From a virus: a stretch of DNA of 64,000 nt. Below, in pieces: positions 4,317 to 63,180 of this stretch. Position 1 is the first letter of the stretch. Each line of letters opens with the position of its first letter. A program made the position numbers and the translations under genes. Below the pieces are notes generated by a model, which was not told where the DNA came from, made no database searches, and worked only from the letters and a program-made list of their open reading frames with translations. Location: positions 1 through 64,000 of the IMG/VR virus record IMGVR_UViG_3300047471_000541. One strand, given 5' to 3'.

Positions 4317-4327
4317 TCAGTCGCGGT

Positions 4328-4357
4328 CTGAGCGCGTGGCAGGTGCTACGCGCTCAG
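4328..4357 (+). promoter_or_regulatory. 10-bp leader hairpin
   Basis: CTGAGCGCGT (4328-4337) and ACGCGCTCAG (4348-4357) are perfect inverted repeats around a 10-base loop. It lies between the micro-gene stop and the leader AACGAAAGGAAACC of the 4400 gene. No T-run follows. A weaker stem around AATTAT lies at about 4363-4380. Confidence 0.55.
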
Positions 4358-4399
4358 GACGCGGCGGAATTATCCGTCCGTAAACGAAAGGAAACCTAG

Positions 4400-45837: not shown

Positions 45838-48800
45838 TTAGAATCCTGTGAACATCGTTCTGCCACCACCTCGGCGGTAGCTCCCTGCACGCTTGCGTTC
45901 CAAAATGGAAGTCATTTGTTCGCGCTCCCGTGGTTCGGCCAAGGCATACACCTTCTCGGCTTCGGCCAGTGGCAACCGGTCAACCGCGCTGGCGATGGGA
46001 CCGAGCCGCGCCCGCTTGTAGAGCTGGGAAATGTCACGTGGATGGATCACACCGGTATTGATCGCCTTGGTAATGTCCGGAGCTTCACCACGACGAAGTT
46101 TCGACACGAGGTCGCGTTTACCCTTCTGAATCTCGAACTGCTCAGGAGTAATGCCTTCCTGCGGGTTGTGCGTCTTGTAGTAAGCGTCCAGTTCGGCCTG
46201 CGCTGGCGTCTGCGTAAGCGCGCGCGGAGCTGGCATGACGCCGACAAGGGGCAGCACCTTCTCCGGAAAGCCTTTTCCGCGCTCCTTGGCGCGCTGGGAG
46301 CCGCGCCACCAGAAGGGCTGGAACGCCGAAATGATATGTTTACCGCTCTGGTAGGCTTGCTTGATCACGCTGGCGTCGGGATCGCGCACTTGAACGCCGT
46401 AATAATCGCGGTTCTTGATGATTTCCCCAAAGAGCGAAATGGCGGGGTGCGTCTTATTCATGATCGTTTCGCCCGGGTGTTTCCCGTAGGCGTACAAATC
46501 CTTCATGTAAGTCGGCAGCACGAAACGCTCGGGGTTGCCATGTTCGTCCTCGCGCCCTGTCCGGAACGCCCAGTAATCCTGCCCCTCCGGTTTCTTGCCA
46601 GAAAAGAGGTAGGTCAACGCCGCGTTCATGACGGCGGTCATCAGCACGAGGGAAATCGCGTAGGCGGTGCGCGGAGGCAGGTCTTTAGGCAGGCTACCGG
46701 TGTCGTGCCATTCCTTGAAGAAGTTACCGGCGTCTTTAACAGCGCCGCCGAGCTGTAGGATCGTGCCGCCAGTCCAGCCAGGAGCGCGCACGAACATCTG
46801 CAGAACGTTTTTCGCAACGTTATTTCCAAACAGCCGCTTGTACTGAACCTGCCCCAGCCGCGCGTCGATGGTCGTCCAGAGCATCGAAAATTGCGGAGCC
46901 AGTTCTTCGAGAGTTTTGCCGGGGTTCATGTCGATAATGCGCCACGCTTCGTGCGCGAAAACGCCCAGCTTCTGGCGCGGCACGAGGAAATCCATGATCG
47001 GTTTCGCCATGAGTTCGATAAGCGCCACAGGCGAACGCACCGCCGCCCGAATCTTCCGCCCGCTGTAGAAATCCTTGTAGGCCGCGTCGATCTGGTCGGT
47101 GCGAAGTCCCTTCTCGATGGATACTCCGGCGCCGGCCAACTCCGCAGCGCGCACGACCTGATTGATACGCGGGTCCTGTGAGGGAGTTTTGCTGACATAA
47201 GCGTTGAGAACCGCGTCGCCAGCTTTCGGCACCGAATACATCGCGGTAGGCTGTTCTTTCAAGACGCTACCTAGATCGCCCATCGTGCGATTGCCGCGCA
47301 TCACTCCATAGACTTCCTGTAACAAGCGCGCGAGGCCGCTGATCTGAGCTTCCATCGAAGTGAAACCAGCGTGGAACGCGCTCCCGATCCCGAGCTGCGT
47401 CTGGTTGAGCAGGTTGGCGAAGGCCATCCACGCGCCAAAGGGTTTGCCGAAGTAACGGCTCTCGTAAAGCGAGTCCGAAAGGTAGTTCTCGATAATGTCG
47501 GCGTATTCGTTAGGCACGATCCGTTTGCCGACCAGATTCAGACCGTAATCCGCACTTTTCGCCCACACCTTCCCGAAGGGATCAGGGAATTCCCGCCAGC
47601 CGTCCGGTGGCTTGGCCGTCGGCGGGATGATCTTCATGTTACCTTCCTCAGTCCACCGCTGGATAATCTTGTTCGCCATGATCGACTGATCCAGTTCGTG
47701 GAGCTTCGCCATGATCGCATCGGCGGGGTTGGGCATCGTCGGCTCGAGTCCGAACTTCTCGGCAGTCAACTTGTCAGTGAACACCATTTCGTGACGAAAC
47801 TTCTCCGGCCCTTTAAGCGGGTGCTTCGCAAACGCGCTCATCCAGCCCTGATCACTGCCCTTATCGGAATTCTGTGCGATTAACTCCTTAACGCGCGCAC
47901 GAATCTCGGCCATTTTCGCTTCCGAGGTGTTATTGGCGTCGAACTTCTCCTTTTCCTTGTCGGTCAGGATTTCGTCGATCGCTTGATTGAAAGCGCGTCG
48001 GCTTTGGACGGTCCAGTAACCGGGGAAATAATGTTGCTTTACCGAACTCAGTGGCGCGTCGGCACGCTCGGCCTGCCTGATCCGGTCGTCGAGCAGCTCC
48101 TTGTAGAGCTTTGCGGCCGCATCGAGTTCAGGCGGATACAAAATGTCGAGAGCCTGATCGGGCGTCATCTTGTTGACTTCTTCCTGTGTGTGACCGCGAG
48201 CCAAGAGAGCGGCCTCCAACTTCCGTCCGGCTGGCGTCACCATTGAAGGAATTGTGCCTCTCGGGCGCACCGGTTTCCCCGTGGACATGGCGTGAGCGAA
48301 CTCGGTGCCTGGGTGATACTCATAGGGAATGTCCGTCCGGTCGGCCCCCATCTTCACAAACATTCTCCACGAACCGCCCTTTGCTGGGAACGAGGGCTGA
48401 ATTTTACGCTTGGCGATTTCGGCTTGCCTGTTTCGTTCGCCCAAAAACTCGCGCACATCGTTCGCGGCCTGTAGGTGCATACCGCCCTTGGAAGTCGGCG
48501 CCAGTCCAGCAACGTCCGAGAGCGCGCCTTTCGCCCAATCCAAGCCGGAACCTTTCGACACCGTAGCGAACACGCCGCGAAGTTTTTTGCGTTGCGCGGG
48601 CGAAAGCATCCCGAGCGTGAACTCGTTGGGGATCCCAATTCGCGAGGGATCATTCGGATCCTCCGTTCTTACCACATGCTCAATCGCTTCTCGCGTAAGG
48701 TCACGCCCGTAACGCAACTCGGCCAGCTTCATGCTGTATTTGTCCATCGCGTGAAGCAGAGCGTTATCATCGCCGAAAGCGGCTTCGTGTTCGAGATACT

Positions 48801-51800
48801 CAGGCAACCGGCCTTCCTTGATCGCCTTTGCTATTGCCGCAACGGGAGCGGGACCACCGAACGTGAAAGACTCAGCGAGTGCTTTGATTTCTTTCGGGTT
48901 TTCCGGTGTCCATTTGTCATGGAAAACTTCGGCAAAGAGTTCGGTGTAGTCAGCCTTGTCGAGCTTCAAGTCAGCTCGCTTCTCTGTGATCGGTCGGCTT
49001 TGCCCAACGCGCGCACGATGCCACGTCGCGTCAATAGAGAGCTGGGTGCGCGGCGATACCAGTTTCAATGCACGGAGGTATTTGTCGTTGGGTTTGGTTT
49101 CACCCAACCCCAGCAGATGAACCGAGGTTGGCTGGCTCTGCTTAAAGAACCGCAGAACGTCTTGCTTGGGGGTGGCGTCCATGTTCGAGGGTATGCCAAT
49201 CGCGATGTTCGGCCCGAACTTCTCTTTGTAGTGGGCATACTGCTCGCTAAGGGAAAGTTTGCCGTTCTGAGCTGGCAGGATCGCGCGCGCACCCGAAGCG
49301 ATGAATTTCTTTATCTCCGCTTGGTAATGATCGAGTAGTTTTAGGGTTGTATCCTGTTCGCCTAAAACGTCGGGCATCACCAAGCTCAGATTGCCGGCAG
49401 AATTCCCGCTTTGCTCAACGAGGCTCGAGTACTTCTCGAACACCTTGTCGAAATCGACCGTCCCGCCGCGCCGCTTCACGCCAAACGCACCGGAATCGAC
49501 AAACACCTTACCACCGGCCTGCGCGTAATCGGCGAGCTTGGTGATGTGCCGCGGCTGCGCTGACTGAATGTCGACGCCGATATTGCTCTTGGTGTTGCGG
49601 TAGGCGTCAATGATCGAATCGGTGTTCGCCCCGCTCTTGAAAGCCGTTACCGGCGTCTTGGGCGCTTGCATGTAAAGAAACTCAAGGCGTGAACCGTGAA
49701 CAGGGTTCCTGACGTACACCGTGTTCCCCACACTGATCGCTTCATCTGCACGAACCACCGGTTCGTCGTTGGTCTTGTCGTAAAAGTAGCTGTGCTCCAG
49801 CGGATCGAAGCCTAGCGGTGTCCACTTGCTCAGATCGTTAATGTCAGAGGGCAGCGCGCGGTCAGGGTTATACTTGCCTTCCGCTGCGGCGATTGGTGCC
49901 TTGCTGATGAGTTGATCCCTGATCTTCGCGGAAGTTCCCTCGCGAACTGTAAAGCTAACGGGACCGTCCAGGCGAACAATCGAATCATATCCGATGTTTT
50001 TCCCCAGTTTGGGGGCGTGAACGGTTTGAGCGTATGTCCCTGAACGTAAAAATGAGGGAATGTCGATTCGGACACTGACAGGAGTGCCTTTCGGTAAAGT
50101 CCGGTTAGCACCAACCAAAGGCGCTTTGTTACTCGTCAGCGCAGCGGCCAGCTTCTCATCCGAAACCGGCTGTGGCTGCTTGAAACTAGGGTCATACCTC
50201 AGCGGTACGCCGCCACCGCGTCCAGTGGCGATTTCGCCTTGGCCTTTTTGGGTTTCACCTTGGCGGGCAATTTCCCCGGGTTGTCGAAGTGATGCTCCCT
50301 CGCCCACTTCTCCCCCTTCACCCCGAACGCCCACTCCCTCTGCGCTTGTGATTTCGCTGGCATATTTTTTTTTCCCTCTCGGTTGCTGCATTCCCATCGT
50401 TTCCGGTGGCGCTTCCTCGCCTTCTGGTGGCGTATAGGGATGCCAAACGGACCTGCTGCCTTGACCTGCTCCTGCCAAAAGCGTCCTCCTCAGTTCGCCT
50501 ATCACTTCGTCGTAAGGCGCTTTTCGCAAAGAGCCGGTTCGCTGATACAACGTCCACATATTTTGCCCCGGAACGCCGATCGTACGTTGGTAAAGCGCAT
50601 AACCGCCGCCCTTCCGAGGGAGAATGTAAAAATGATGCTTAACGTTTCCGCCCTTCTCCGTTTCGGTCGCTATCGGGCGATCCTGCCCGGGTGTGATCGC
50701 GCCTCCCATCGACTTCGGGAGCTTCTGGCCAGTAAGCGCGAGCTGGCCCGCGTACGGCGCGATTGCCTCGGTGCCGGAAGGTAGCGGTCGAGCGCGCGGA
50801 GTAACATACTCCTGCACAGTGGAAAACTTCGCCGCGCCCTGAGCTGGCGGCTTTAACACCTGTGGCCGGATTCCTGCCAGTGAATTGTAGATCGACGCCT
50901 TGTGCCGGAGCCAGAGTTCCGTTTCGCGTCGGCTCAAACCCTTTGGCGGATTGGTGCTGAGGAGAAGCGAGGAGCGATCGGGATAAGAATAGTCGATGTG
51001 CTTCGCTTCCTTTTTCAGATCCAAACCCTTCTCGTAAATCGCGAGCAACCCTGACTCTCGGGTTATGTCTTTCCTACGCCGCATCATTTCAAAGTTTCGC
51101 TTGTACTGGGCGATCACTCGGTCGTGCAGCCGCGCCAGAATTTCCCCAGGCACCCGCTTATCGTAGAGGTATTGGGCGAAGCTCTCGGCGAAAAACTCAT
51201 AGACGTTATTGGAGTAATAGCGCGACTTGGAGGTTGAAGCCTGCGGGGTTCCTTGAACGAAATAAGCCTGTGTTCCGCTGCGGCCACCGAGCTTGGCGTA
51301 CAGACGCGCCACGGCCCTGCGCTCAGGCACGGTCAGTAACACAAAATAAGCAACGTGACCGAACTCGTGCAGGAACACTTTTCCCTTGTCGTTGGAGAGG
51401 ATCGCATTGTGGCGCGCCTTCTTTTTACCTCGCTGCAACGTGAGGCTTCCCCGCCCGCCGTAGGTTCCGCCACCTGTCCCCAACGCCTTCATTCTCGGGT
51501 TGCTGGCGAAATCGATCCGCTGCAAGAACTCGCCCTTCATTTGCGCAGCCAACGCCCGTATCATTTCAGCGTGCGTAGGGAAAATCGTGTTTTCCTTAAC
51601 GAACTGTTCAAGCTCGTGCTGCAAATAAGCGTGACCGGGACTCAAAGCTGAGAACTTCGCTGGGTCGTCCACCAGCTCCATGATTTCGTCCTCGCTCATC
51701 TGGTTCGCGTTGTTGCGCTGCCGGTCGGTTTCGTCCTGAATGTCCTTGAAGAACTTGTCAGCCTTGTCCTGCGCGTCTTTCCTGACCGCTTCGTTAGGTG

Positions 51801-54800
51801 ATTGCAGTCGCTCGCGCGCTTCCTGCTCGCTGATGTATCCCGGCTCACCGGTTCGCATCTGGCGCATGATCCTCTGGAACTGTGGCTCGCGCTTGAACAC
51901 GGTCATTACCGCCACCGCATCGTCGTTGAGTTTGATTTCCGCGGTGCGCTGCGACAGCGGTTTTAAGTTCTTCAAATCGCCGCTCACCATGGCCGAGAGC
52001 GTGACCAGTTTGTGAGCGAAAATATCGATGTTCCACGTATCAACCGGATGGTCGACGAACAGGAACTCCACATGCGCTTTGGATTTCGTGGTCAGGCGGT
52101 TGACGCGCCCGATGTTCTGAATCCCCTCGATTGCGCTCAGGGGCGCGGTCACGATGATCAGGTCGCGAGGAACGCCTCCGTGAATGTCGTCCAGATTGAT
52201 GCCGGTTCCCGCACTGTTAGGCGTCCCGAGCATAACCTTGATTTCGTTGCGCTGAAAACGGTCAATGTCGCGCAGGGAACGCTTGTTATCGCCGCCGTAC
52301 ACCCTGCCGATGGTGTTTTTCCCGTAAATTTTCTCCAGAGAGGCGTGAATCTTATCCAGCGTCCCCTCAATTCCCTGCTGGTAGCTCCCCGCCGTCCCTT
52401 CTTTGATTCGGGAAGCGAACACGATGACCTGGTTCCCTTTCTTGGTCGATTCTTGGACCTTTTTGATTACGGCTGGAATCTTCTGATTTTCCAGATACGC
52501 GCGCACCGTCATTCCAGCAACGCCACCCGCGTTCTGCGCGCTCTTTACCTTCACTCCCTCGTAAATCCGGCGATACATGGCGTCGGCGTGAATGAAAGCC
52601 TCGTCACTGATAGGAACTTCGACGAAGTTCACCTCCACGTTGTCCATCGGGACGTTGCGGCTAATCATCTTCCCGTTGCGCGTTAGCTCGTCAAAGATCG
52701 CCTCCTTAACCCGCTCAATGTCCTGCGCCGTGATGTTGTCGGGGTACTTGAAGCGAATGTCGACCTCGCCCGTTTCGGGGTTCACACTCCGCTTCCATGT
52801 GATGCCGAGACTCCCGTAAACCTCTTGAACCGCGGCGTCGCCAACCAGAGGAGCCAGATAAACAATCTGCTCGGGCTTATCGAAGGGCGTAGCCGTCGCG
52901 TACATTACGTGCTGCGCCACCGAAGAAAGATCGCTGCCGGCCAACGCCTGAGCTGTCTCGTATCCGGCGTTGCGTAACCCCTGCGCCTCATCAAAAATGA
53001 TCGTTCGGAACGTCCCCTTCTTCACCAAGCCCGAACGCACATCGTTGTAGGTCGCCAGATACACGCGATCCGGCTTCACTTCGTCGCCCCTGTAACGCCA
53101 CGCATCGATTCCCAGCATTTCAGCGTCTTTAGCGAAAGCGTTGTGAACAATCCGCTCGTTCTCGGTCACGATCAGTGTAGCGTGAACCATGCCTTGCTTG
53201 AGCGGCCTTCTCTTGGGCGAAAGACCGTTTTCTTTGCTGTAGTTGTTTTTTTCGGGATCGTACGGGAGCGCCTTGGTATTCGCCATCACTTGACCGACCG
53301 CGAGCTGCTGGACGGTCTTGCCGGCGCCGGGGCCGTCGTTGTTCAAAAACCCTGTGCCACCGTCAAAAGCCCACAGCGCGAGGTTAGCTCCCCATTGTTG
53401 GTGGGGCTTCATGATTTTCTTAAAACGCTCCGGCAAAAACTGAACCCTGCTCTTTTGAGTCATCCCACTCCGGTTCATCACCAAGGAAACCGGCTTACTT
53501 TTTTCGCCAGTTGGTTTCTCGACCTTCTCGCCAGTGAACAGTTCACCCTGATCCTTGGACTCTTTAGCCTTGGGTCCCTCTAGCTTGTAGCTCTCACGAC
53601 GATTGGGGCGGTTCTTGTTATCCGCTTTCCACATCGCCAGATGGGTTTCAGCGGCCTTCTTCGCGTCGTTGAAAGTGGATTGCTCGCCTATAGCGTCAGC
53701 CCCACCGCCTTCGGGGTTGAAAAAGTGGATCGCAAACACCGACGGCTGCACCTCGGAAATCGAGTAGGAAACACCGGTAGATTTCGAGAGTCCGTCCCAA
53801 TGTCGGATAACGTGTTCGCCTTCCCCGGGCGGTTCCTCGCCTTCCTCGGGTTCCTGTATTGCGCCTTCTTTCCAGACAATCTCCGGAAGGTTATCCATCC
53901 CTGGCAGCGAATCGGTTTGCTTCGCGCCCTTCACCGGCTTCGCCATGAACAATACTTCCGGCGAGTACTTGGGATAAAGCCGAGTCGCAGATAAAACGGC
54001 GTCAATCCGTGAATCATGTTCGTCGTGACCGCTCGGCGTCCAATCCCCCGGCTGCATCTTCATCACCATTTGGTCGGTGAGTTGCGGCACCATCGGCCTG
54101 TGGAACGTAGTCGTGCGCCATTGACCGGCCTTGGTCGGTCGAATCAAAGCCCCAGGCACTTTGGATTCCAACGCCGTTTCGGTACGCGGCACAACCGGCG
54201 TTACGACAGAAACATTGTTCGGGCGCTCTGGATTAGTGAAAACGATCGGAGCGTTCTCGGGGATCTGGCTCGCCCAGTTTTTGAGTTGGTCCCAGTACTG
54301 ATCGCGTTTCTGGATATGCTCGGAAAACGGTTCACCTGTAACAGTCGGCGGGTACTTCGGTGGCTGAGGAACCGCCATCAGCTTCGGCTTCTGCATGAAC
54401 AGCGTCTGCTGACCACTCTTGTCTATACCAGGAGCCAGAATATCCAACTCGCTCTGACCGCCCAAGACAGCGCGCTTGGGTTCTGGCGGCTTCTCGTCCA
54501 GCGGAAACTCGTCCTCCGACTCCTGCAATTTGCGCGGAGTCTTGTTCGGATCGATGAGCAACTTTTGCCCCAGCTTCTTCTCGTACTTAAGCCGCAGATC
54601 GTGTTCTGCCGGCGTCAACTTTTTACCCGAGTCCTCTTTCTTTTTGAGCGCCTGCAACACCCGCTCCTCTGCCGTCATGCCGCCGAATTTTCCCGGCTGC
54701 ATCATCGAAAGGGTTTTCAAGTTCTTGTCGCGGATCAACCCTTCGCCAAGATCAATGTTCTGAGACATTAAATCCTCGGCACCTTTTTCCAGAGGGAAGT

Positions 54801-57800
54801 AGTCGTTGACCGCCTTCTGGAACGCCTTTTTCGCCTGCGGCGTTTCAAAACTGTGGAACCACTCGAAGATCGCCTCAATGTCGAGGTAACGACGATCAAA
54901 CAAATTCTGCTCCAAGTCCTGCAAATACTGGATCGGCTTTATCCCCAGCTTCGCCCGTTCCTGCTCCATTTTGAGCATCGCCGTGAACTTGGTCATGTCC
55001 TGCCCGCGCCGCTTCATGGTCATCAGCGACGCAAGCCCGTTGATCATTTTATTCAGAGCTTTGGTCTTGTTGACCAGTTGGAGGGTTTCAACGTCGTCGA
55101 TGATGTGACCGACCAGTACCAGCCGCGCGAATTTCGCACCCTGCTCGGTGAACCCGCCGTTGTCAGCGATAAATTTCGACCGATCGGTTTCACGCAACGC
55201 ACCGTCCTTGAACATCGCGTTGACCAAATCTTCCGCCGCGGCCTCTTTCAATGCGGTCAACGGCGGCTTGTTCAAATCCCTCTCGAACAAGTGACCGGCT
55301 GTATCGAGGGTTTCAGGAGTCAACTGGCGCGCGGCGCTGATCGCTTCAAATTCCTCGATCTTGGGCTGCTCCAAGGTCGTATTGAGAACGCGCCCGATTG
55401 CTGCTTCCTGTTCGGGTTCCAGAATGTCGTCGACAACGGCCATGAGGTAAGGCCAGCCGCCTGCGTCCTGCATATCCTTGACGAACTGTTTGTTTATTCC
55501 GAACGCCTCGATCCGCTTTGGAAGCTCCTCCTCGTATTTCGCCCTCTCGATCAGATCGCGATAATGGCGGCGATGCCCGCCCAGCTTCATATACCGGCCT
55601 TCAACAAAAACAGCTACGCCGGGACCCTGTAAAAAACTCGGGTCTTTCGTGAAAGGAAAACGCCTGTCATACCCCGGCTTATTGTCGGTTCGCTCTCCTG
55701 TCGTCTGTAGCAGGTAATCCTGAGTCTCCTTGAAGCTGGCGTCTGGTTGCTCGTTCTCAGGATTATCAACAACCATGCGGCTATCGACCAGCATGTAGGT
55801 GACCGCGATCTGGTCACCGTTAGGCATCTGAATGTACTCGTGGCCCAAGTCACCCGATCCCTCGTGCGATGGGATAACTTCGGCTTGGCTAATGTCAGTG
55901 TCCGAAATCGGGCCAGGACCACCAATCTCTTTGGGAACAGTAGGCGGTCTGCGAGGAACCTTGGACACTATCTGCGGCTTTGGCGCTATGACCACAGGCT
56001 TAGGATCGTTTTCCTGTTCCTTGGCGAGCTCGACCGCTTCGCGGAACGCATCCAGACTCAACTCGTGGTCGGTTCCTGTCGTATGAACGTAATCCGGTGG
56101 CGCGGTATCTACTGCGGCCACCGCTTCCTCCACGGTGTCGTAACCGTCGAGCGCATCCTCTAGCACCGCTTGTTGCGCTTCGGAATCTGATAGATCCTCC
56201 TTTTTGGCGTGAAACTGGTAAAGCTCGTTGAGATCATCGCTCCGGAACGGCAGTTCAGTGTCCTGCTTGGTCAGGTCGTCCATCGCGCGCAGGCGCGCCT
56301 CGATCCACGGCGTTTCCGGCTCCTGTAAGAACGGGAGCAGTTTCGCCCACGCTTCGGGTTCAAAGTCAGCTTCCTCGGGAATGATGCCGTGAGCCAACTG
56401 GAACCTCATCCGTTGAAACTCAGCCGCCATTACTATATCCCTGAAATGTTTGGGACCGGTCCAGTTATAGACCTCTGGCATCAACGCCTTGATGCGCGGA
56501 TTGAGTTCCTTCCAGACGCGCTCACGATCCTTGTCGACGTTAGCGCCCGAAATGATGATTTCTCGAATGTGGCCGGCTTCGCCAGCCATTCCACGCTCGA
56601 ACGCGCTCAGAGCTATCGCCCTAGCTTCCTCTGGCGTTTTCCCGAGCGTGATTTGGTTTTCGGTTGCTATGTCAAGCGTGTCCGCTACAACCTCGGGAGC
56701 ATAAACAATGTCGAGCGCGCCAGTTGATTTAGTGAAACGCGCCCCAATGCCACCACCGGGAATTTTGTCGGGCGCGACGCGAGTTAGCGGAACGCTTTGG
56801 CCGGAGAGTTTACTGACGCGGATGCCGCGTGGGAGGGCGTCGTGGTACTCTTGGACAATCTTCTCGGCCTCTGCATGGCGGTGTAACGCATTATCTGGTT
56901 CTGCCGGTCCACCCACTCCGGGTTCGCCTTCGCCTGTCGTTGGAGGCGTTTCAGTAGGAGGTAGTGTTTCCGGCCCAGTGCCACGAGAAGGAGGTTGCGC
57001 CCCTTTTTCCAATTCCGCAATCTTATTGTTCGCACCCTCCTTGGAACTGAAATAACCGTGATTAACGCCGGTGGAGTCGTGCACCTCGAAGCCGTCCTGA
57101 GCTGGGACGACGCTGTATGTCACTTTGGCCGGAGCTTCTGGCGGCTTAGGGCCAACCGTAGGATCAAACTTTACGTGATAACCCGCTGGTTTTCCGTCGA
57201 TGGTGACCGGCTCAACCCATGTTCCAGGTCGCTCGGCGGCGAACTCGTCAGCTTCCGCTTTTGTGCGGAACGGTTTGGTCAGCCAATTTTCACCTTTGCG
57301 CGGTGCTGGCTTTCCCTTGGGCTTCTCCGGTGGCGCACCATGCTTCTCTGCCGCCTTTTGGAACTCCGCTTTAGCCGCCTGATAAGCGTCCCACGCTGCG
57401 ACTCGCTTGGGATCAGTGGACAGTAGATGCGCCAGCGCCTTGTAAGCGTTGAAAGCGTCGGTCTGCTTCTGGTAAAGCTCCTGCGGCGTCGCTACTTTGG
57501 GCGCTTCCTCTGCCGGCGCTTCGGCCTTGGGTTTCCCGTAGACAACGGATCCCTTTTTAACGATTTTCCAGCCGTCGCCAGAGCGTTGCACTTCTGCCGG
57601 TGTGACCGACGTAATGTCTTTCGAGTGCAGGATCGCTGGATCGCCAGTGTTGTTGGTGACGTCTAAGAGCGCGTCCAGATCAACTTTTCTCGAGTTTTCC
57701 CCGCTCAGAGCGTGCGGCACCGCGTAGTGTTTGCCTCCGACGCTGAGAACTTTCGCTCTTGCGGTGTCGAGAAAAGTGGGAGCGGCTTTGTCTTTTAGCT

Positions 57801-60800
57801 CGGGCGAGTGGGAAGAACGATCCCAGTACACCGTGTCGCCCTTGTCCAGAATTTCCGTGTGCGCTGGCGCTTCGCCTTTGGCTTCTGCCGGTGGAGTCGG
57901 CTCCGGCACCTCCGCTGTCGGTGGCCGCTCGACCGGAGCTGGCTCAGGTGCTCCCGCTCTCTCGACTGCGATTTTTCCTCGGCCTATATTGAAATTAATG
58001 TCAGCCGTAGGTAGAACAGTCTGTTCACCGTTCTCCGGATTGGTCAAAACTGTGTGACCACCGTCAACTCCGTCAACACGCCAGCGACCAGCCCATTTCC
58101 CCTTGTCGATGGTAATGTGATCGCCAACGGCGTGAGTGTCTACGGCTGGAACGGCTGGAGGTTGGGCGGTTTCTTGCCCGGGTTGCGCCTCGGGAGCGGG
58201 AACCGGCGCTTGTCCACCTGGGGCGACGGTTGCGCCTGGGGCGGTGGTTGTGCCGCCGCCAGCGCCTCCAACGGGTTGTCCGGTTGTCCCTGCTCCTGCG
58301 GTTGTGGTTGGCCCTGCTGTGACAACTGGGGCGGGGGTAATTCCGCCTCCGGCTCCGGCATCGGCATCGACCGGCTGAGTGATCGTGCGTGGAGTACTTT
58401 CTGGTTTACCGGTAGGTTGTGTTTGCTGAACTGGCCCTTGCCCTTGCCCTGCCCCTTGCTGCTCACTTGGTACATTGGTTGGTTCTCCTGCGCCGATGGT
58501 TGGTGTGACCGGTGTAGCCGGTCCTTTCTCGACTGGTGGCGCTTCCCCGCCGCGAATATCTACTGTCGTGTTCTTGATTGGCTGACCGCCCTGCAAAGCC
58601 TGTCGCGCGCTCACTTCGACCGTATTTGGATCCATCGGGAGCTGGCCGGTTCTTTGCAATTCCAGCATCCGACGACCGAAGCCTTCATAAACTTCGACTT
58701 CCTTGGGAGTAAGCGGCTTTCGCATCGAAGCCAGCCTTGACGCACCGTCAGGATCGTTACCGAAGGAAGCCGCCATTTGCGCTTCCATCTGCGGCGTCAG
58801 GTTTTCGTTGAGGCCGATACCGTTATCCATGCGCGCCTTGCCGCGCATCACAATGTCGCCAACCTGCGTCTTGTTGTAGCCTTCAAACTCGAGTCCGTGA
58901 CCGGCTGCGAACGCACCGAGCAAAGCGGCCGCGCCAGCGTTTTGCCACGTTTCGCCCTGCGGCTGCAAACCCGCCGCGTGCATCCCTTCGTTGATAATTG
59001 TGTCAACGGCGACGTTGGTCGCTGCCGCCAGACCGACTTTGCCAATAATAGCTTTGGCTACTGCCGCCCTCACCGCGCCGGGATCAGCGTCACTCGCGGA
59101 AGCCGCTGTGCGAATCGCGGCGTCCTCTTTCAAGTTCTGGACGGTGTTCCACAAACCGCCGCCGCTTCCGTAGTAACTCCGCGCAATCCCGTTGGCGTAC
59201 CGCGCGGCTACGGACGCGGGGTCTTGCGCCGCCATAGTTTTCGACGCCCACGCTTGGTCAGCCGCAGACACAGGATCACCAGCGGCTGCGGCTTTATTGA
59301 TTGCCTGCGCTCTGCGGAAGTTGTTACTGATTGCTTCGGCGGTTGTTCCTTCTGCCGCCGACGCGCCAGCGAGCTTCCCGCCTATCGCTTCCACGCCACC
59401 GCTAATCGCCTTGGACGCGCCCTTGGTGAACGCGCCCGCGCCGAAACTAATCAGGTTGCCCGCCAGATCGTAGTTGGGATGCAGATCGCTTGAGGCCGAG
59501 AGCGAATGGATCGTGTCGTTGTAATCTCCGAGCTTCCTAATGAGCGCGCCTGCCGTGTGCTGCGCGATCCCGCCGCTGATCAATCCACCGACCGTTGCGC
59601 CAATAGGAATTGTCGCCCAATCGAGCGGTCCGCCTAAAGCGCCAATTTCCCCGCCGATACCAGCACCCACAGGAAATCCAGCCGCAAACGCGCTCCCTTT
59701 GACCGCACCATTCAACATCGCCTTGAGCTCAGGATTATCGCCCGCCGCGGCGATCAGTTTGTTCCGATCGTCCGTCGCCTTTTGTATGGCATCCAGTTGA
59801 GGTTTGACTTGCGCGTACCTATCGGGATCGATCACTCCATCTTTCGCGGCCTGCGCCATACTGCCCGCAATGTCTTTGGGGTTGAAGTGAACATTGTCCT
59901 GCGAATCCACCGCGTAAGGCTTACCGGAAGGGAAGACGTCAGGTGTCCCCATCTTGTCATGGTTGGCTTCGGCGAAAGCATTGGCTGACTCCGGCCCCAC
60001 GAACGTTCCAAGGTTCTTTCCGGTCTGCTTGTACTGCGCGACCGCCTCGTCGTGCGACATTTCGTGGCCGTCATCGGCAATCGTCGGGATCAACACTTCG
60101 CCTTTGTCGGTTCCAACCGAAATCGATTTGACGGTACTAGTCGTGCCGTCGGCGTTCGGGACGCGCGGGCGCGTGTTGTAGTCGATGTTCCCCGGCGCCG
60201 TCATGCCTGCCGCTTGCTGCGGCCCGTAGTTAGGTTGAATTCGAGCCGCTTCTATCGCCTGTTGCTGCGGCGTCACCTGCGGTTGGTCTGGTTGTCCAGT
60301 TGAACTTGTCCGAGGCGGCTGATCCAGAGGACCTGGCTGACCTTGTTGGTGAGCCATTAACGTGTCGAGAGCCGCGCGCTCCTGATCGCGACCAGCCTGC
60401 ACGCGGTCGCTCAAATCGCCCAGTTTGTCTTTCAGATCGTACAGACCGTTAGCCGTGTCGATCGCGTCGGCCTTGCGCTGATCAATGTGCGCGCGAAGTT
60501 GTGTCGCTGCAGGAGATAGGTCCTTGGAGAACCATCCGTTAGTCTCGTTCGCCTGCGGCTGCGCGTATTCACTGTCGAAATGGGTATTGATCGCTTTAAG
60601 GATCGTGTCGCGGTCAGCGCCTTCGAGTCGCGGGTCTTGGAGAGCTGGCACGCTCGCCGTTAACTCCTTCATCATCTGTTTGTGCTCGGCTGTGCCAGCG
60701 ACCAGATCGGCTTGATCCAACGTCAATTTTTTGCCAATCAACTGCGAAGTTTTCGCTATCGCTTTGTCTTTGGCCTCCTGCATCCGTTGATCGCGGATCG

Positions 60801-61572
60801 CCGGATCAACGCCCTGCCACTGCCACGGAAGTCCTTTGGCGACCTTGTACTGGTCGCCGGTTTTCATATCGGTTCGCAGAGGCAAACCCTCAAACGGATC
60901 GGTCAACTTCGGTTCGAGCGTGGTCGTCGGCCCCGCCCGCTGCTGATCCCTTAAAGCAGCCGCGCGCTCGAACTTGTCAGGGCTTGATCCCGGTGGTGGC
61001 GACAAATCTTGCGGTGAAATAAAATCGTCGGCAGGCTGTCGCGTGACCGGCTGGAAACTAATCTTCTTGGGGTTACCCGTTGAGTCGTAGGCGATGTTGT
61101 TGCTCTTGTCGTACTGCGTAAGTGGCGAGCCTGTATCGTCAGTGACCGCCGTTACCCCGCCATTGGCCTCTCGATAGGTCGGCACTCCGCGCGAGGCCAG
61201 ATCGGACGCTTGCAGTCTGTTTGCGCGATCTGTTTGCGCTTGCGCCGCGCGAGCTGCGGCCTGCGCTGCCCGCTGCGCCGCAATCTGGCCTTTCTGTGCA
61301 CGACCAGCCGCGAGCTCGTCGACAATCGGTTGGGTATCGACGTTGGTCTGCTGGAAGTTCTGGATCTGAGCAACCGGAGTGGCCTGCGCGACATTCGGTC
61401 CTGCCAAATCTACGTCGCGCGTGGTAATTCCGCCCGTGTTGGGAACAGTCGCTCCGGCTAAACGCCCCTGCGGCCCAGTTCCGTAATACTCATACGGCAT
61501 CGTCGGCGGCGGAGGAGGAGGCGGCTGCTCCTCCTGCGTGTAATCGCCTACCTCATCGAGAGGATTCGCCAT
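45838..61572 (-). CDS. Giant polyvalent protein, 5244 aa, multi-domain, probably injected
   Basis: One uninterrupted frame of 15.7 kb. Visible parts: Pro/Gln-rich N-terminus; SVGTDKGEVLIPT block near residue 475; Gly-rich hydrophobic region near 625-670; Pro/Thr-rich linkers to 1450; DdrB-like ParB region with KLGGHRRHY near 2000; SF2 helicase with GPGAGKT (about 2747), DEAQ and QNIGRVNR motifs; zincin with HEFGH near 3403 and YEFFAESFAQYL after it; LPD-type block RIDIPSF near 3836; TGT/DpdA-like TIM barrel with FVDSGAF (4026) and HLLGLG (4154); a C-terminal module with one membrane segment near 4979. This is the polyvalent-protein theme: enzymes carried in the virion and released into the host. 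Confidence 0.75.
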   Translation of the reverse strand: MANPLDEVGDYTQEEQPPPPPPPTMPYEYYGTGPQGRLAGATVPNTGGITTRDVDLAGPNVAQATPVAQIQNFQQTNVDTQPIVDELAAGRAQKGQIAAQRAAQAAARAAQAQTDRANRLQASDLASRGVPTYREANGGVTAVTDDTGSPLTQYDKSNNIAYDSTGNPKKISFQPVTRQPADDFISPQDLSPPPGSSPDKFERAAALRDQQRAGPTTTLEPKLTDPFEGLPLRTDMKTGDQYKVAKGLPWQWQGVDPAIRDQRMQEAKDKAIAKTSQLIGKKLTLDQADLVAGTAEHKQMMKELTASVPALQDPRLEGADRDTILKAINTHFDSEYAQPQANETNGWFSKDLSPAATQLRAHIDQRKADAIDTANGLYDLKDKLGDLSDRVQAGRDQERAALDTLMAHQQGQPGPLDQPPRTSSTGQPDQPQVTPQQQAIEAARIQPNYGPQQAAGMTAPGNIDYNTRPRVPNADGTTSTVKSISVGTDKGEVLIPTIADDGHEMSHDEAVAQYKQTGKNLGTFVGPESANAFAEANHDKMGTPDVFPSGKPYAVDSQDNVHFNPKDIAGSMAQAAKDGVIDPDRYAQVKPQLDAIQKATDDRNKLIAAAGDNPELKAMLNGAVKGSAFAAGFPVGAGIGGEIGALGGPLDWATIPIGATVGGLISGGIAQHTAGALIRKLGDYNDTIHSLSASSDLHPNYDLAGNLISFGAGAFTKGASKAISGGVEAIGGKLAGASAAEGTTAEAISNNFRRAQAINKAAAAGDPVSAADQAWASKTMAAQDPASVAARYANGIARSYYGSGGGLWNTVQNLKEDAAIRTAASASDADPGAVRAAVAKAIIGKVGLAAATNVAVDTIINEGMHAAGLQPQGETWQNAGAAALLGAFAAGHGLEFEGYNKTQVGDIVMRGKARMDNGIGLNENLTPQMEAQMAASFGNDPDGASRLASMRKPLTPKEVEVYEGFGRRMLELQRTGQLPMDPNTVEVSARQALQGGQPIKNTTVDIRGGEAPPVEKGPATPVTPTIGAGEPTNVPSEQQGAGQGQGPVQQTQPTGKPESTPRTITQPVDADAGAGGGITPAPVVTAGPTTTAGAGTTGQPVGGAGGGTTTAPGATVAPGGQAPVPAPEAQPGQETAQPPAVPAVDTHAVGDHITIDKGKWAGRWRVDGVDGGHTVLTNPENGEQTVLPTADINFNIGRGKIAVERAGAPEPAPVERPPTAEVPEPTPPAEAKGEAPAHTEILDKGDTVYWDRSSHSPELKDKAAPTFLDTARAKVLSVGGKHYAVPHALSGENSRKVDLDALLDVTNNTGDPAILHSKDITSVTPAEVQRSGDGWKIVKKGSVVYGKPKAEAPAEEAPKVATPQELYQKQTDAFNAYKALAHLLSTDPKRVAAWDAYQAAKAEFQKAAEKHGAPPEKPKGKPAPRKGENWLTKPFRTKAEADEFAAERPGTWVEPVTIDGKPAGYHVKFDPTVGPKPPEAPAKVTYSVVPAQDGFEVHDSTGVNHGYFSSKEGANNKIAELEKGAQPPSRGTGPETLPPTETPPTTGEGEPGVGGPAEPDNALHRHAEAEKIVQEYHDALPRGIRVSKLSGQSVPLTRVAPDKIPGGGIGARFTKSTGALDIVYAPEVVADTLDIATENQITLGKTPEEARAIALSAFERGMAGEAGHIREIIISGANVDKDRERVWKELNPRIKALMPEVYNWTGPKHFRDIVMAAEFQRMRFQLAHGIIPEEADFEPEAWAKLLPFLQEPETPWIEARLRAMDDLTKQDTELPFRSDDLNELYQFHAKKEDLSDSEAQQAVLEDALDGYDTVEEAVAAVDTAPPDYVHTTGTDHELSLDAFREAVELAKEQENDPKPVVIAPKPQIVSKVPRRPPTVPKEIGGPGPISDTDISQAEVIPSHEGSGDLGHEYIQMPNGDQIAVTYMLVDSRMVVDNPENEQPDASFKETQDYLLQTTGERTDNKPGYDRRFPFTKDPSFLQGPGVAVFVEGRYMKLGGHRRHYRDLIERAKYEEELPKRIEAFGINKQFVKDMQDAGGWPYLMAVVDDILEPEQEAAIGRVLNTTLEQPKIEEFEAISAARQLTPETLDTAGHLFERDLNKPPLTALKEAAAEDLVNAMFKDGALRETDRSKFIADNGGFTEQGAKFARLVLVGHIIDDVETLQLVNKTKALNKMINGLASLMTMKRRGQDMTKFTAMLKMEQERAKLGIKPIQYLQDLEQNLFDRRYLDIEAIFEWFHSFETPQAKKAFQKAVNDYFPLEKGAEDLMSQNIDLGEGLIRDKNLKTLSMMQPGKFGGMTAEERVLQALKKKEDSGKKLTPAEHDLRLKYEKKLGQKLLIDPNKTPRKLQESEDEFPLDEKPPEPKRAVLGGQSELDILAPGIDKSGQQTLFMQKPKLMAVPQPPKYPPTVTGEPFSEHIQKRDQYWDQLKNWASQIPENAPIVFTNPERPNNVSVVTPVVPRTETALESKVPGALIRPTKAGQWRTTTFHRPMVPQLTDQMVMKMQPGDWTPSGHDEHDSRIDAVLSATRLYPKYSPEVLFMAKPVKGAKQTDSLPGMDNLPEIVWKEGAIQEPEEGEEPPGEGEHVIRHWDGLSKSTGVSYSISEVQPSVFAIHFFNPEGGGADAIGEQSTFNDAKKAAETHLAMWKADNKNRPNRRESYKLEGPKAKESKDQGELFTGEKVEKPTGEKSKPVSLVMNRSGMTQKSRVQFLPERFKKIMKPHQQWGANLALWAFDGGTGFLNNDGPGAGKTVQQLAVGQVMANTKALPYDPEKNNYSKENGLSPKRRPLKQGMVHATLIVTENERIVHNAFAKDAEMLGIDAWRYRGDEVKPDRVYLATYNDVRSGLVKKGTFRTIIFDEAQGLRNAGYETAQALAGSDLSSVAQHVMYATATPFDKPEQIVYLAPLVGDAAVQEVYGSLGITWKRSVNPETGEVDIRFKYPDNITAQDIERVKEAIFDELTRNGKMISRNVPMDNVEVNFVEVPISDEAFIHADAMYRRIYEGVKVKSAQNAGGVAGMTVRAYLENQKIPAVIKKVQESTKKGNQVIVFASRIKEGTAGSYQQGIEGTLDKIHASLEKIYGKNTIGRVYGGDNKRSLRDIDRFQRNEIKVMLGTPNSAGTGINLDDIHGGVPRDLIIVTAPLSAIEGIQNIGRVNRLTTKSKAHVEFLFVDHPVDTWNIDIFAHKLVTLSAMVSGDLKNLKPLSQRTAEIKLNDDAVAVMTVFKREPQFQRIMRQMRTGEPGYISEQEARERLQSPNEAVRKDAQDKADKFFKDIQDETDRQRNNANQMSEDEIMELVDDPAKFSALSPGHAYLQHELEQFVKENTIFPTHAEMIRALAAQMKGEFLQRIDFASNPRMKALGTGGGTYGGRGSLTLQRGKKKARHNAILSNDKGKVFLHEFGHVAYFVLLTVPERRAVARLYAKLGGRSGTQAYFVQGTPQASTSKSRYYSNNVYEFFAESFAQYLYDKRVPGEILARLHDRVIAQYKRNFEMMRRRKDITRESGLLAIYEKGLDLKKEAKHIDYSYPDRSSLLLSTNPPKGLSRRETELWLRHKASIYNSLAGIRPQVLKPPAQGAAKFSTVQEYVTPRARPLPSGTEAIAPYAGQLALTGQKLPKSMGGAITPGQDRPIATETEKGGNVKHHFYILPRKGGGYALYQRTIGVPGQNMWTLYQRTGSLRKAPYDEVIGELRRTLLAGAGQGSRSVWHPYTPPEGEEAPPETMGMQQPRGKKKYASEITSAEGVGVRGEGGEVGEGASLRQPGEIARQGETQKGQGEIATGRGGGVPLRYDPSFKQPQPVSDEKLAAALTSNKAPLVGANRTLPKGTPVSVRIDIPSFLRSGTYAQTVHAPKLGKNIGYDSIVRLDGPVSFTVREGTSAKIRDQLISKAPIAAAEGKYNPDRALPSDINDLSKWTPLGFDPLEHSYFYDKTNDEPVVRADEAISVGNTVYVRNPVHGSRLEFLYMQAPKTPVTAFKSGANTDSIIDAYRNTKSNIGVDIQSAQPRHITKLADYAQAGGKVFVDSGAFGVKRRGGTVDFDKVFEKYSSLVEQSGNSAGNLSLVMPDVLGEQDTTLKLLDHYQAEIKKFIASGARAILPAQNGKLSLSEQYAHYKEKFGPNIAIGIPSNMDATPKQDVLRFFKQSQPTSVHLLGLGETKPNDKYLRALKLVSPRTQLSIDATWHRARVGQSRPITEKRADLKLDKADYTELFAEVFHDKWTPENPKEIKALAESFTFGGPAPVAAIAKAIKEGRLPEYLEHEAAFGDDNALLHAMDKYSMKLAELRYGRDLTREAIEHVVRTEDPNDPSRIGIPNEFTLGMLSPAQRKKLRGVFATVSKGSGLDWAKGALSDVAGLAPTSKGGMHLQAANDVREFLGERNRQAEIAKRKIQPSFPAKGGSWRMFVKMGADRTDIPYEYHPGTEFAHAMSTGKPVRPRGTIPSMVTPAGRKLEAALLARGHTQEEVNKMTPDQALDILYPPELDAAAKLYKELLDDRIRQAERADAPLSSVKQHYFPGYWTVQSRRAFNQAIDEILTDKEKEKFDANNTSEAKMAEIRARVKELIAQNSDKGSDQGWMSAFAKHPLKGPEKFRHEMVFTDKLTAEKFGLEPTMPNPADAIMAKLHELDQSIMANKIIQRWTEEGNMKIIPPTAKPPDGWREFPDPFGKVWAKSADYGLNLVGKRIVPNEYADIIENYLSDSLYESRYFGKPFGAWMAFANLLNQTQLGIGSAFHAGFTSMEAQISGLARLLQEVYGVMRGNRTMGDLGSVLKEQPTAMYSVPKAGDAVLNAYVSKTPSQDPRINQVVRAAELAGAGVSIEKGLRTDQIDAAYKDFYSGRKIRAAVRSPVALIELMAKPIMDFLVPRQKLGVFAHEAWRIIDMNPGKTLEELAPQFSMLWTTIDARLGQVQYKRLFGNNVAKNVLQMFVRAPGWTGGTILQLGGAVKDAGNFFKEWHDTGSLPKDLPPRTAYAISLVLMTAVMNAALTYLFSGKKPEGQDYWAFRTGREDEHGNPERFVLPTYMKDLYAYGKHPGETIMNKTHPAISLFGEIIKNRDYYGVQVRDPDASVIKQAYQSGKHIISAFQPFWWRGSQRAKERGKGFPEKVLPLVGVMPAPRALTQTPAQAELDAYYKTHNPQEGITPEQFEIQKGKRDLVSKLRRGEAPDITKAINTGVIHPRDISQLYKRARLGPIASAVDRLPLAEAEKVYALAEPREREQMTSILERKRAGSYRRGGGRTMFTGF

Positions 61573-61575
61573 GAT

Positions 61576-63135
61576 TTACACGTACTGGTCTGGTGGAGGC
61601 AACGGTGGTGGAACGTAAGGAGTTCGTTGAGGTGCGCCCCCGCCCAAAAACGCTGCCGTCGTCTGGTCGGTTTTGTTTATGTCCAGCTCCGGCGAAGTCT
61701 CGGTTTTCGCTATCGCGTTCTGATTGGTCGGCGTTTCAATGTCCGCCGCCTGCCGGTTGGAAACTCCCGCTGGCGTGGAACCGCCAGCCGACGCCTGAGT
61801 ATTCGGCGCGGCAGTCGGAACTGAACCACGGAAAGGAAGAACGACACTCCCCGCGTTAGCAGGTGGCGTCACCAGATTATCAATCGGCGCTTTGGGTTGC
61901 CCGCCATACTGCGGATCAGAAGGCAGGTGCGGCGGAAGAACGTCCGGCCCTTCGCCGGTTGCCGGTGGCATGAATCGCTGGCGTTCCTCGTCAGTCTGCG
62001 GCACACCCATTTTCACCGCCGCTGGACTGTGAAGCAGGTTATCGAAAAAGCCACCTTGCCCACGCGCCACCCGCTCCTGTGGCGTCAAATTTTCAATCGG
62101 CGTCATTACCCCGCCTTGGTTGAGGTAGCGGCTTTCGGGTTTCTTGTTGCCGTCGCCCACGCCAGCTTCACCCACGACTTTTCCAAGGTCAGGTTCTCCT
62201 GGTTTAATTCCAGCAGCGGCAGCGCCAGCAGCCATACGCGCCGCGTGATAATCGGGGTTCGGGTAAAACTCGTTGTTCGTGTGCAGGTAATCATGAACGT
62301 TGCCCGGGGTTCGATGAGCAATCACCGAATCCACGTTGTACGTTGCGCCCTTCGTTCCGTACACGCCTTCCTCGTCCCGCCACGGAACCGCCGAGCGCGT
62401 TTCAAAAGAGTTCGGACCAGTGATGACAACTCGGTGCGACCCCGGCTTGTTCGGATCGCCCATCGTGCCAGCTTCCACGCTCGGGAGCCGGTTGCCGTAC
62501 GGATCGCGGAACGGTCCGCGCTGATCAGCTCCACCGCCACCGCCCGCAACAGCAGCACCGCCGCCGGCAGTTCCACTGTTTATCCTTGCGGCTCGCGCGT
62601 CTTGGCCGGGATCATACCCGCGACCTGGACCGCCAATCAAAGTTTGTCCCTGCGGCGTCGAAGTCACCGCGTCCGCCGAAGGTCGTCCCGCGATAGCGTC
62701 GGCAGACAACGGGACACCCTGCACGTTGGCGACAGGCGTGCGCGTTCCGTTCCCGCTCGCCAGTTGCGCTCGACGCTGGTTGAGAGACGCCCCGCCAGCG
62801 CCGCCGCTTTCGACCTGCTTCAATCGCGCTGCCCACTCTTGGAGCTGCGGATCGGTGTGCATCCGGCTCGGGTCATTACTCATCCTCGCTGCGATATTGG
62901 CTCGCAACCACTTGGGATCATGCAACACATCGGTCTGCCCGTAAGCGTCCTTGTTCGTGGTGTACGCATCCTTGTTCGTGGTGTAGGCGTCTTTGTTTCG
63001 GTCGTAGGCCGCGTTGAGCCCCACCCCGCCACCGCCGATTCGTGGCGCTGGTGCTCCGCTGCCGCCCGCCGAGCTACTGGTTTGCGGAGCGTTCTCATCC
63101 GCTGGATCAATTAGCCGCCGTTGTCGTCGTGCCAT
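61576..63135 (-). CDS. Low-complexity Gly/Pro-rich virion protein, 519 aa
   Basis: I choose ATG 63135 (MARRQRRLIDPADENAPQTS), with AGAGGG six to seven bases upstream; an upstream ATG at 63153 and a TTG at 63171 are also in frame. Contains three tandem NKDAYTT/GQ repeats near residue 50, then long Gly/Ala/Pro-rich stretches and FFDNLLHSPAAVKMGVP. Probably an internal or ejection protein next to the giant gene. Only three bases separate its stop from that gene. Confidence 0.6.
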   Translation of the reverse strand: MARRQRRLIDPADENAPQTSSSAGGSGAPAPRIGGGGVGLNAAYDRNKDAYTTNKDAYTTNKDAYGQTDVLHDPKWLRANIAARMSNDPSRMHTDPQLQEWAARLKQVESGGAGGASLNQRRAQLASGNGTRTPVANVQGVPLSADAIAGRPSADAVTSTPQGQTLIGGPGRGYDPGQDARAARINSGTAGGGAAVAGGGGGADQRGPFRDPYGNRLPSVEAGTMGDPNKPGSHRVVITGPNSFETRSAVPWRDEEGVYGTKGATYNVDSVIAHRTPGNVHDYLHTNNEFYPNPDYHAARMAAGAAAAGIKPGEPDLGKVVGEAGVGDGNKKPESRYLNQGGVMTPIENLTPQERVARGQGGFFDNLLHSPAAVKMGVPQTDEERQRFMPPATGEGPDVLPPHLPSDPQYGGQPKAPIDNLVTPPANAGSVVLPFRGSVPTAAPNTQASAGGSTPAGVSNRQAADIETPTNQNAIAKTETSPELDINKTDQTTAAFLGGGAPQRTPYVPPPLPPPDQYV

Positions 63136-63136
63136 A

Positions 63137-63164
63137 AGCCGCCCTCTGCCCATAGAGGGCGGCT
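63137..63164 (-). promoter_or_regulatory. 11-bp hairpin covering the ribosome site of the 61576 gene
   Basis: AGCCGCCCTCT (63137-63147) and AGAGGGCGGCT (63154-63164) pair perfectly around a 6-base loop. On the transcribed strand the 3' arm holds the AGAGGG ribosome site and ends two bases from ATG 63135. Pairing would hide the site, so it may tune translation of the protein. Confidence 0.55.
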
Positions 63165-63180
63165 CTTGCAAGCAAAAAAC

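What the first reader, a model, noticed from the sequence alone, without database searches (positions are those of the whole stretch)
45838..61572. A 5244-residue polyvalent protein taking a quarter of the window
It unites ParB-like, SF2-helicase, metallopeptidase, TGT/DpdA-like and LPD-type regions in one chain. It sits between a low-complexity virion protein and the portal, so it is probably packaged. I could not link several long stretches (for example about residues 680-1450 and 4200-4800) to any family; these are the best place to look for new activities.
Basis: partly seen in the sequence, partly recalled or inferred. Interest (0 to 1): 0.8.

Follow-up and report, generated by a model that had tools for sequence, protein, structure and literature searches.

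The report
Giant ejected phage protein carrying enzymes
This phage makes one 5,244-residue protein whose tail end belongs to a family of injection-apparatus-like modules that, in related uncultivated phages, sits behind many different enzymes, so the protein probably delivers a package of enzymes into the host along with the phage DNA.

Summary
The ORF is real and exactly where stated: 45838-61572(-), 5244 aa, open, with coding codon bias throughout. An SF2 helicase, an HEFGH metallopeptidase motif and a DpdA/TGT-like domain with three conserved DpdA motif residues are supported; ParB-like and named LPD regions are not. Neither "unassigned" stretch looks like a hidden enzyme. Residues 680-1450 are a hydrophobic segment plus Pro/Thr-rich linker. 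Residues 4343-5244 are an undescribed, almost all-helical module (AF2 pLDDT 84). About 30 IMG/VR contigs carry this module at the C-terminus of proteins of 910-4811 aa whose N-terminal cargo differs (InPase/RadC/LPD3; ddrB-ParB/Strawberry-notch helicase/PBECR1; GGDEF/ART; others). The module shows weak but converging similarity to T7 gp16, the inner-membrane ejectosome protein: profile score above all 199 shuffles, compatible register in structural alignments, a shared [N/T]Y-x-P-H motif, membrane-like segments flanking the cargo, and in two relatives the gp16 slot of the ejection operon. Residues 443-540 also match phage DNA-transfer/internal virion proteins (up to 54%). Best explanation: a gp16-type ejection protein stretched into an enzyme carrier, delivering cargo to the host cytoplasm with the DNA. 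No experiment shows virion packaging, and the gp16 homology is not individually significant.

The parts
45838..61572 (-). 5244-aa giant carrier protein
   Evidence: single open frame
60253..61572 (-). residues 1-440, low-complexity N-terminus rich in Q/P/A
   Evidence: composition; inference of disorder
59953..60246 (-). residues 443-540, domain shared with phage DNA-transfer / internal virion proteins
   Evidence: tblastn up to 54% identity, E down to 7e-26, 19 phage records
59503..59691 (-). residues 628-690, glycine-zipper hydrophobic segment (candidate first membrane region)
   Evidence: hydropathy and G-zipper pattern; comparable segment before the cargo in L041
58993..59049 (-). residues 842-860, hydrophobic segment
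   Evidence: hydropathy
57223..58575 (-). residues 1000-1450, Pro/Thr-rich linker, perhaps with small beta-rich beads (no family match)
   Evidence: composition; no hit in Pfam/PHROGs/NCBIfam
51976..53400 (-). residues 2725-3199, SF2 helicase
   Evidence: phrog_62 1.6e-19; motifs; the same helicase in relative L028, 29% over 492 columns
51013..51465 (-). residues 3370-3520, zincin-like metallopeptidase (HEFGH 3402)
   Evidence: motif only
49705..50190 (-). residues 3795-3956, segment shared with an unnamed 994-aa protein encoded after the portal of Podoviridae sp. ctYwJ313
   Evidence: 36% identity, E 6e-11
48853..49605 (-). residues 3990-4240, DpdA/TGT-like base-exchange domain
   Evidence: phrog_887 5.5e-7; hhalign to phage DpdA score 42.0 vs 24.9 best of 150 shuffles; motif counterparts D4026, H4152, D4181
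45841..48546 (-). residues 4343-5244, conserved helical C-terminal carrier (ejection) module
   Evidence: in about 30 viral contigs; AF2 pLDDT 84, pTM 0.81; T7 gp16 / PhiM1 ejectosome similarity
48010..48030 (-). residues 4515-4521, YFPGYWT, the family's [N/T/H]YFPHxW motif
46603..46659 (-). residues 4972-4990, conserved hydrophobic helix 47-56 residues before LPTYxKD (candidate second membrane region)
45841..45861 (-). residues 5238-5244, RTMFTGF C-terminal tail, found only in carriers next to this portal lineage
43291..45837 (-). portal protein gene directly downstream
   Evidence: phrog_1216
61576..63171 (-). low-complexity 531-aa protein directly upstream
   Evidence: no family hit

Best explanation
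The giant is an ejection protein built as an enzyme carrier. Its C-terminal about 900 residues are a distant, helical relative of the T7 gp16 cytoplasmic/inner-membrane region; this module would place the protein in the head, near the portal, and take it through the portal into the cell envelope during infection (inferred). The N-terminal part holds a domain shared with other phages' DNA-transfer proteins and a first hydrophobic segment; a second hydrophobic helix lies in the module. The enzymes (SF2 helicase, zincin, DpdA-like base-exchange domain) lie between these two segments, the region that is cytoplasmic in gp16, so they would be threaded into the host cytoplasm with the DNA. There the zincin could release them (inferred), and the helicase and DpdA-like domain would act on entering DNA or host nucleic acid before any phage gene is expressed (inferred). 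Shown: the open frame, the domains, the constant module with variable cargo across many phages, the order of elements. Inferred: virion location, membrane insertion, cleavage, targets.
For: (1) The module is constant while the cargo changes: about 30 IMG/VR contigs, C-terminal in proteins of 910-4811 aa; cargo includes InPase, RadC and LPD3 (L041), ddrB-ParB, Strawberry-notch helicase and PBECR1 (L042), ResIII/SNF2-type helicase (L011), GGDEF and ART-PolyVal (L021), and the giant's own helicase type (L028). (2) gp16 similarity: module profile vs gp16-family profile, score 43.9, single-comparison P 9e-4, against a best of 26.5 in 199 local shuffles and 24.4 for the reversed alignment, matching NYFPHIW to gp16 TYVPHVYD. 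VIA-align of the AF2 model puts T7 gp16 first (Z 7.5, 221 aligned) and PhiM1 ejectosome second (Z 5.9), the next row 4.2. For a second model of a divergent member these two have the highest Z of the matches over 100 residues (5.0 and 4.6), in compatible registers. (3) In L030 and L035 the gene order is tail protein (phrog_376) - internal virion protein (phrog_418) - about 480-aa protein - carrier, the ejection-operon order of the review PMC8954989. (4) Residues 443-540 match proteins annotated as DNA transfer / internal virion / minor structural protein. (5) A hydrophobic helix 47-56 residues before LPTYxKD in most carriers, and a second one N-terminal of the cargo, parallel gp16 TMH I and TMH II flanking its cytoplasmic part.
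Against: No virion proteomics. The gp16 link is weak by each single test: hhalign probability 23%, Foldseek against PDB finds nothing significant, single-sequence profile comparisons are at noise, and the tool warns that Z below about 13 can be chance for helical models. In the replicate, short HEAT-like importin matches rank above gp16. In the window itself the gene lies between terminase and portal, not in a recognised gp14-gp15-gp16 operon. The zincin rests on its motif.
Confidence: 0.68

Rival explanations
1. An ordinary phage polyvalent protein: packaged with the head and injected, but its C-terminal module is just another LPD-type domain (for example a divergent LPD38) without relation to gp16 and without a role in building the ejection channel.
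For: The best fold matches in the viral library are proteins named 'Large polyvalent protein associated domain-containing'; one module member touches LPD38 at E 0.11; Iyer et al. 2017 describe such proteins next to late genes (PMC5512222).
Against: No Pfam/PHROG model convincingly matches the module. It behaves as a constant C-terminal carrier, occupies the slot after the internal virion protein in two relatives, and its register to gp16 agrees between sequence and structure.
Confidence: 0.2
2. A non-ejected head-maturation or scaffold-like structural polyprotein, or an enzyme polyprotein made late in infection, whose enzymes act inside the producing cell during packaging.
For: Gene order terminase - 531 aa - giant - portal; the genome also encodes other helicases.
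Against: The domain at 443-540 is shared with DNA-transfer/internal virion proteins; relatives carry typical injected-effector cargo such as ART-PolyVal, PBECR1 and ddrB-ParB.
Confidence: 0.1
3. An assembly or frame artefact that fuses several genes.
For: Only residues 4463-5244 have an identical copy on another contig.
Against: Coding codon-position pattern through the whole frame; other phages have nearly as long (4715, 4811 aa) single frames with the same module at the C-terminus.
Confidence: 0.02

Closest known systems
Phage polyvalent proteins (Iyer et al. 2017, PMC5512222)
   Same: Many unrelated domains in one chain, next to portal/terminase genes, zincin motif, SF2/SNF2-type helicase; relatives carry ddrB-ParB, PBECR1, ART-PolyVal, InPase, RadC, LPD3
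   Different: The text searches of that paper found no TGT, queuine or deazaguanine terms; it states that polyvalent proteins do not follow the organisational plan of secreted toxins, whereas here a constant C-terminal module carries exchangeable cargo
T7 gp16 / podophage ejectosome proteins (PMC8954989; PhiM1, PMC11440229)
   Same: Large helical protein, two membrane-like regions around a cytoplasmic part, [T/N]Y-x-P-H motif, gp16 slot in relatives' ejection operons
   Different: About four times longer, no transglycosylase domain recognised by Pfam, multi-enzyme cargo inserted; similarity only at the weak profile and fold level
Phage DpdA / TGT-like 7-deazaguanine DNA transglycosylase (PMC6884629)
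   Same: DSGAF, the His equivalent to 9g H196, and S-[ICV]-D-[SA]-[ST] in order
   Different: A domain inside a putatively ejected giant rather than a free replication-cluster enzyme; no QueC, QueD-type PTPS or FolE gene found in the record
N4 virion RNA polymerase
   Same: Very large packaged protein with an enzyme, a zincin-like region and a C-terminal region required for encapsidation (PMC5512222)
   Different: No RNA polymerase domain was recognised here; the C-terminal module was not compared directly with that of N4

Membership tests
Phage polyvalent proteins | Several domains of disparate activity in one polypeptide | tested here: met
   helicase, zincin motif and DpdA-like domain in one frame
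Phage polyvalent proteins | Encoded beside virion/late genes with portal-terminase packaging | tested here: met
   portal, terminase-like and major head genes nearby
Phage polyvalent proteins | Homologous proteins carry named polyvalent domains | tested here: met
   ddrB-ParB, PBECR1, ART-PolyVal, InPase, LPD3 in module-sharing relatives
T7 gp16-type ejection proteins | Sequence-profile similarity | tested here: inconclusive
   score 43.9 vs best of 26.5 in 199 shuffles, but hhalign probability 23%
T7 gp16-type ejection proteins | Same fold | tested here: inconclusive
   gp16 and PhiM1 first and second for the giant's module, Z 7.5 and 5.9; again the best long matches in a second model, Z 5.0 and 4.6; Foldseek not significant
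T7 gp16-type ejection proteins | Last and largest gene of the ejection operon (gp14-like, gp15-like, gp16-like) | tested here: inconclusive
   met in relatives L030 and L035; in the window the gene sits between terminase and portal
T7 gp16-type ejection proteins | Two putative transmembrane regions | tested here: met
   hydropathy only: residues 628-690/842-860 and 4972-4990
T7 gp16-type ejection proteins | Present in virions and ejected | not testable with these tools
   needs proteomics; uncultivated phage
DpdA (phage TGT-like) | Motif residues: DSGAF Asp, His196 (9g) and second Asp | tested here: met
   D4026, H4152 and D4181 by motif order; only the DSGAF region is aligned by hhalign
DpdA (phage TGT-like) | Full-length TIM-barrel similarity | tested here: inconclusive
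   hhalign covers 57 columns only; phrog_887 match 43-124 of 509
LPD38 (PF18857) | Match above Pfam cut-off | tested here: not met
   only one of 25 module members, E 0.11; none
ddrB-ParB (PF18763) | Match of residues 1741-2140 to the family | tested here: not met
   no Pfam hit; no similarity to the ddrB-ParB region of L042

The most novel reading that the evidence does not exclude
A modular delivery chassis in uncultivated podophages: a constant gp16-type ejection module, with exchangeable enzyme cargo spliced between its two membrane segments, so that the machine that opens the DNA channel is covalently fused to a changing arsenal. In this phage the arsenal includes a virion-borne DpdA-like enzyme that could alter DNA or tRNA from the first moment of infection, using host preQ0.
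Probability: 0.4. Interest if true: 0.8.

Novelty: new variant of a known kind. Interest (0 to 1): 0.62.

Why it matters
Polyvalent proteins are thought to be injected, but what loads and delivers them is mostly unknown. A shared ejection-type module would give one answer, let new injected effectors be found simply by reading what precedes the module, and make directly testable how very large enzymes pass through a phage portal. It also makes testable the idea that a phage can carry a base-exchange enzyme in the particle rather than express it after entry.

Tried and rejected
Pfam, PHROGs and NCBIfam on the whole protein: only helicase and TGT-like matches. ParB-like and LPD claims: no support. 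Relatives of the helicase/peptidase region or of the DpdA-like region in IMG/VR by short peptide patterns: none. phrog_887 in 24 records, including 23 carrier/portal-relative records: only in this genome. PDB by sequence profile: nothing; by Foldseek: nothing significant. Single-sequence hhalign of the first module profile against the long ORFs of the fetched T7, phiKMV, SP6 and P-SSP7 stretches: T7 gp16 ranks first but within noise. A first shuffle control crashed and was rerun. No member of the family in 50,697 phage records with the short carrier L035 as query. preQ0 genes: none in the record. The R-x-x-F-T-G-F tail was first taken as a family signature; it is limited to carriers beside this portal lineage.

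Full report
1. The observation. A 5244-codon frame runs without a stop from 61572 down to 45838 on the minus strand. The window is the first 64,000 bases of a 67,860-base IMG/VR record. GC content by codon position keeps a coding pattern in every 250-codon block. A separate contig (L005) repeats residues 4463-5244 and the next gene at 100% identity. Upstream lie the low-complexity 531-aa gene and a terminase-like gene. Downstream lie the portal (phrog_1216, E 1.3e-5), an endolysin-type amidase and the major head protein (phrog_334). The frame is not an artefact in any test I could make.

2. Domains of the giant. The helicase is clear: phrog_62, E 1.6e-19, core motifs present. The metallopeptidase rests on HEFGH at 3402 and a downstream NVYEFFAESF. 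The TGT/DpdA-like claim holds: phrog_887 at E 4.6e-6 to 5.5e-7, and hhalign of this single sequence against seven phage DpdA proteins scores 42.0 (P 3.6e-5) against a best of 24.9 in 150 shuffles. Read by eye against that DpdA alignment, the motifs occur in order: DSGAF (D4026), DVLGEQDTT, VHLLGLG (H4152, the counterpart of 9g His196, which PMC6884629 calls conserved in DpdA but absent in DpdA2) and SIDATW (D4181). Beyond about 57 columns the barrel is not aligned, so activity is a prediction. The record holds no QueC, PTPS or FolE gene; singleton DpdA phages are known and may use host preQ0. I found no support for ParB-like or named LPD domains.

3. The unassigned stretches. Residues 680-1450 contain one hydrophobic segment (842-860) and a Pro/Thr/Gly-rich linker. 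Residues 4343-5244 are the key part. Four relatives of the neighbouring portal (56-76% identity; L006, L008, L009, L010) have at the same place a gene encoding a different large protein. The complete one (L009/L011, 3012 aa) shares with the giant essentially only the last about 900 residues (46%), with one other short match of 56 residues. A profile of this module found 30 IMG/VR loci and two genome contigs. In all where the end is seen the module is C-terminal, in proteins of 910 to 4811 aa. Cargo: L041 InPase, RadC, LPD3; L042 ddrB-ParB, Strawberry-notch helicase, PBECR1; L011 SF2/SNF2-type helicase; L021 GGDEF and ART-PolyVal; L028 the same helicase type as the giant. In several members an HE[IL]GH zincin lies inside the module, at about giant 4672-4677 for those whose break was mapped (L041, L042, L023, L028). 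The family matches nothing convincing in Pfam, PHROGs or the PDB by sequence, and the short carrier L035 finds nothing in 50,697 phage records.

4. What the module is. AF2 with 25 rows gives pLDDT 84, pTM 0.81, nearly all helices. In the viral structure library the best matches are proteins named 'large polyvalent protein associated' (E down to 4.8e-13). Among solved structures the two best VIA-align matches are T7 gp16 (9jyy_I, Z 7.5, 221 residues, rmsd 4.7) and the PhiM1 ejectosome protein (8vb2_A, Z 5.9), then a gap to 4.2. Foldseek alone sees nothing significant, and Z under 13 can be chance for helical models. I therefore tested it two further ways. A profile of 25 extended modules against ten gp16-type proteins gives score 43.9, P 9e-4, aligning the family motif NYFPHIW with gp16 TYVPHVYD; 199 local shuffles reach at most 26.5. 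A second AF2 model, of the divergent member L035, again has T7 gp16 and PhiM1 among its matches, with the highest Z of those over 100 residues (Z 5.0 and 4.6), aligned over gp16 residues 544-819 and PhiM1 534-906, which for gp16 is compatible with the sequence register; short HEAT-like importin matches rank higher.

5. Topology and operon. In gp16 the cytoplasmic DNA-clamping part lies between TMH I and TMH II (PMC8954989). Of 21 carriers examined, most have a hydrophobic helix 47-56 residues before LPTYxKD, and about 13 of those seen to their start have another near the N-terminus, before the cargo. So cargo lies where gp16 is cytoplasmic. In L030 and L035 the carrier follows a tail protein (phrog_376), an internal virion protein (phrog_418) and an about 480-aa protein, the gp14-gp15-gp16 order of the review. 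In addition residues 443-540 of the giant match phage proteins annotated as DNA transfer, internal virion or minor structural proteins, and the corresponding domain occurs in L013/L041.

6. Mechanism. Inferred: the module sits in the head near the portal; on adsorption the chain is threaded through the portal; the two hydrophobic regions cross or enter the inner membrane; the enzymes between them reach the cytoplasm with the DNA; the zincin may free them. Carriers beside this portal lineage all end in [RK][TP]x[FY][TS]GF (giant, L006, L008, L010, L011) whereas the other carriers do not, which suggests a tail matched to its portal. T7 gp16 also needs its last residues for infectivity.

7. Comparison and novelty. 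It fits the polyvalent proteins of Iyer et al. 2017 (PMC5512222). That paper reports no TGT-like domain in the terms I searched and says these proteins do not conform to the organisational themes of secreted toxins, which have fixed delivery domains. A constant ejection-type module with exchangeable cargo would be such a plan. Text searches for ejection proteins together with polyvalent proteins found no paper, though only open-licence papers were searched. I call it a new variant of a known kind. The weakest steps are virion presence (untested) and gp16 homology (converging but individually weak).

Noticed in passing
window 45841-45861 and L006, L008, L010, L011 C-termini: Carriers next to this portal lineage end in [RK][TP]x[FY][TS]GF even when the rest has diverged beyond BLAST (L008); the other carriers lack it. 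Possible portal-docking or packaging tail.
   Followed up: partly
L041 about 4017, L042 about 4074, L023 1622, L028 1712, L027 555 (protein positions): An HE[IL]GH zincin lies inside the C-terminal module, mostly at one insertion point; the giant has none there but has its own HEFGH at residue 3402.
   Followed up: partly
L021 4592-12322: Carrier with a GGDEF and an ART-PolyVal domain: a possible injected cyclic-dinucleotide synthase.
   Followed up: no
window 59953-60246 and phages SPN1S, Bas106, Klyazma, RHph_TM27A: About 95-residue domain with up to 54% identity found at different places of DNA-transfer/internal virion proteins, not significantly matched by Pfam or PHROGs.
   Followed up: partly
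L006 3-5501 and L011 1724-10759: Portal relatives at 65-76% identity have carriers whose cargo is almost wholly replaced, suggesting fast cargo turnover.
   Followed up: partly
window 61576-63171: Low-complexity 531-aa protein with NKDAYTT tandem repeats just upstream of the giant; position would suit a second virion protein.
   Followed up: no
L039 (JAJXWO010000002.1): A carrier on a 255-kb contig of a Deltaproteobacteria MAG, possibly a prophage and a hint at the host range of the family.
   Followed up: no
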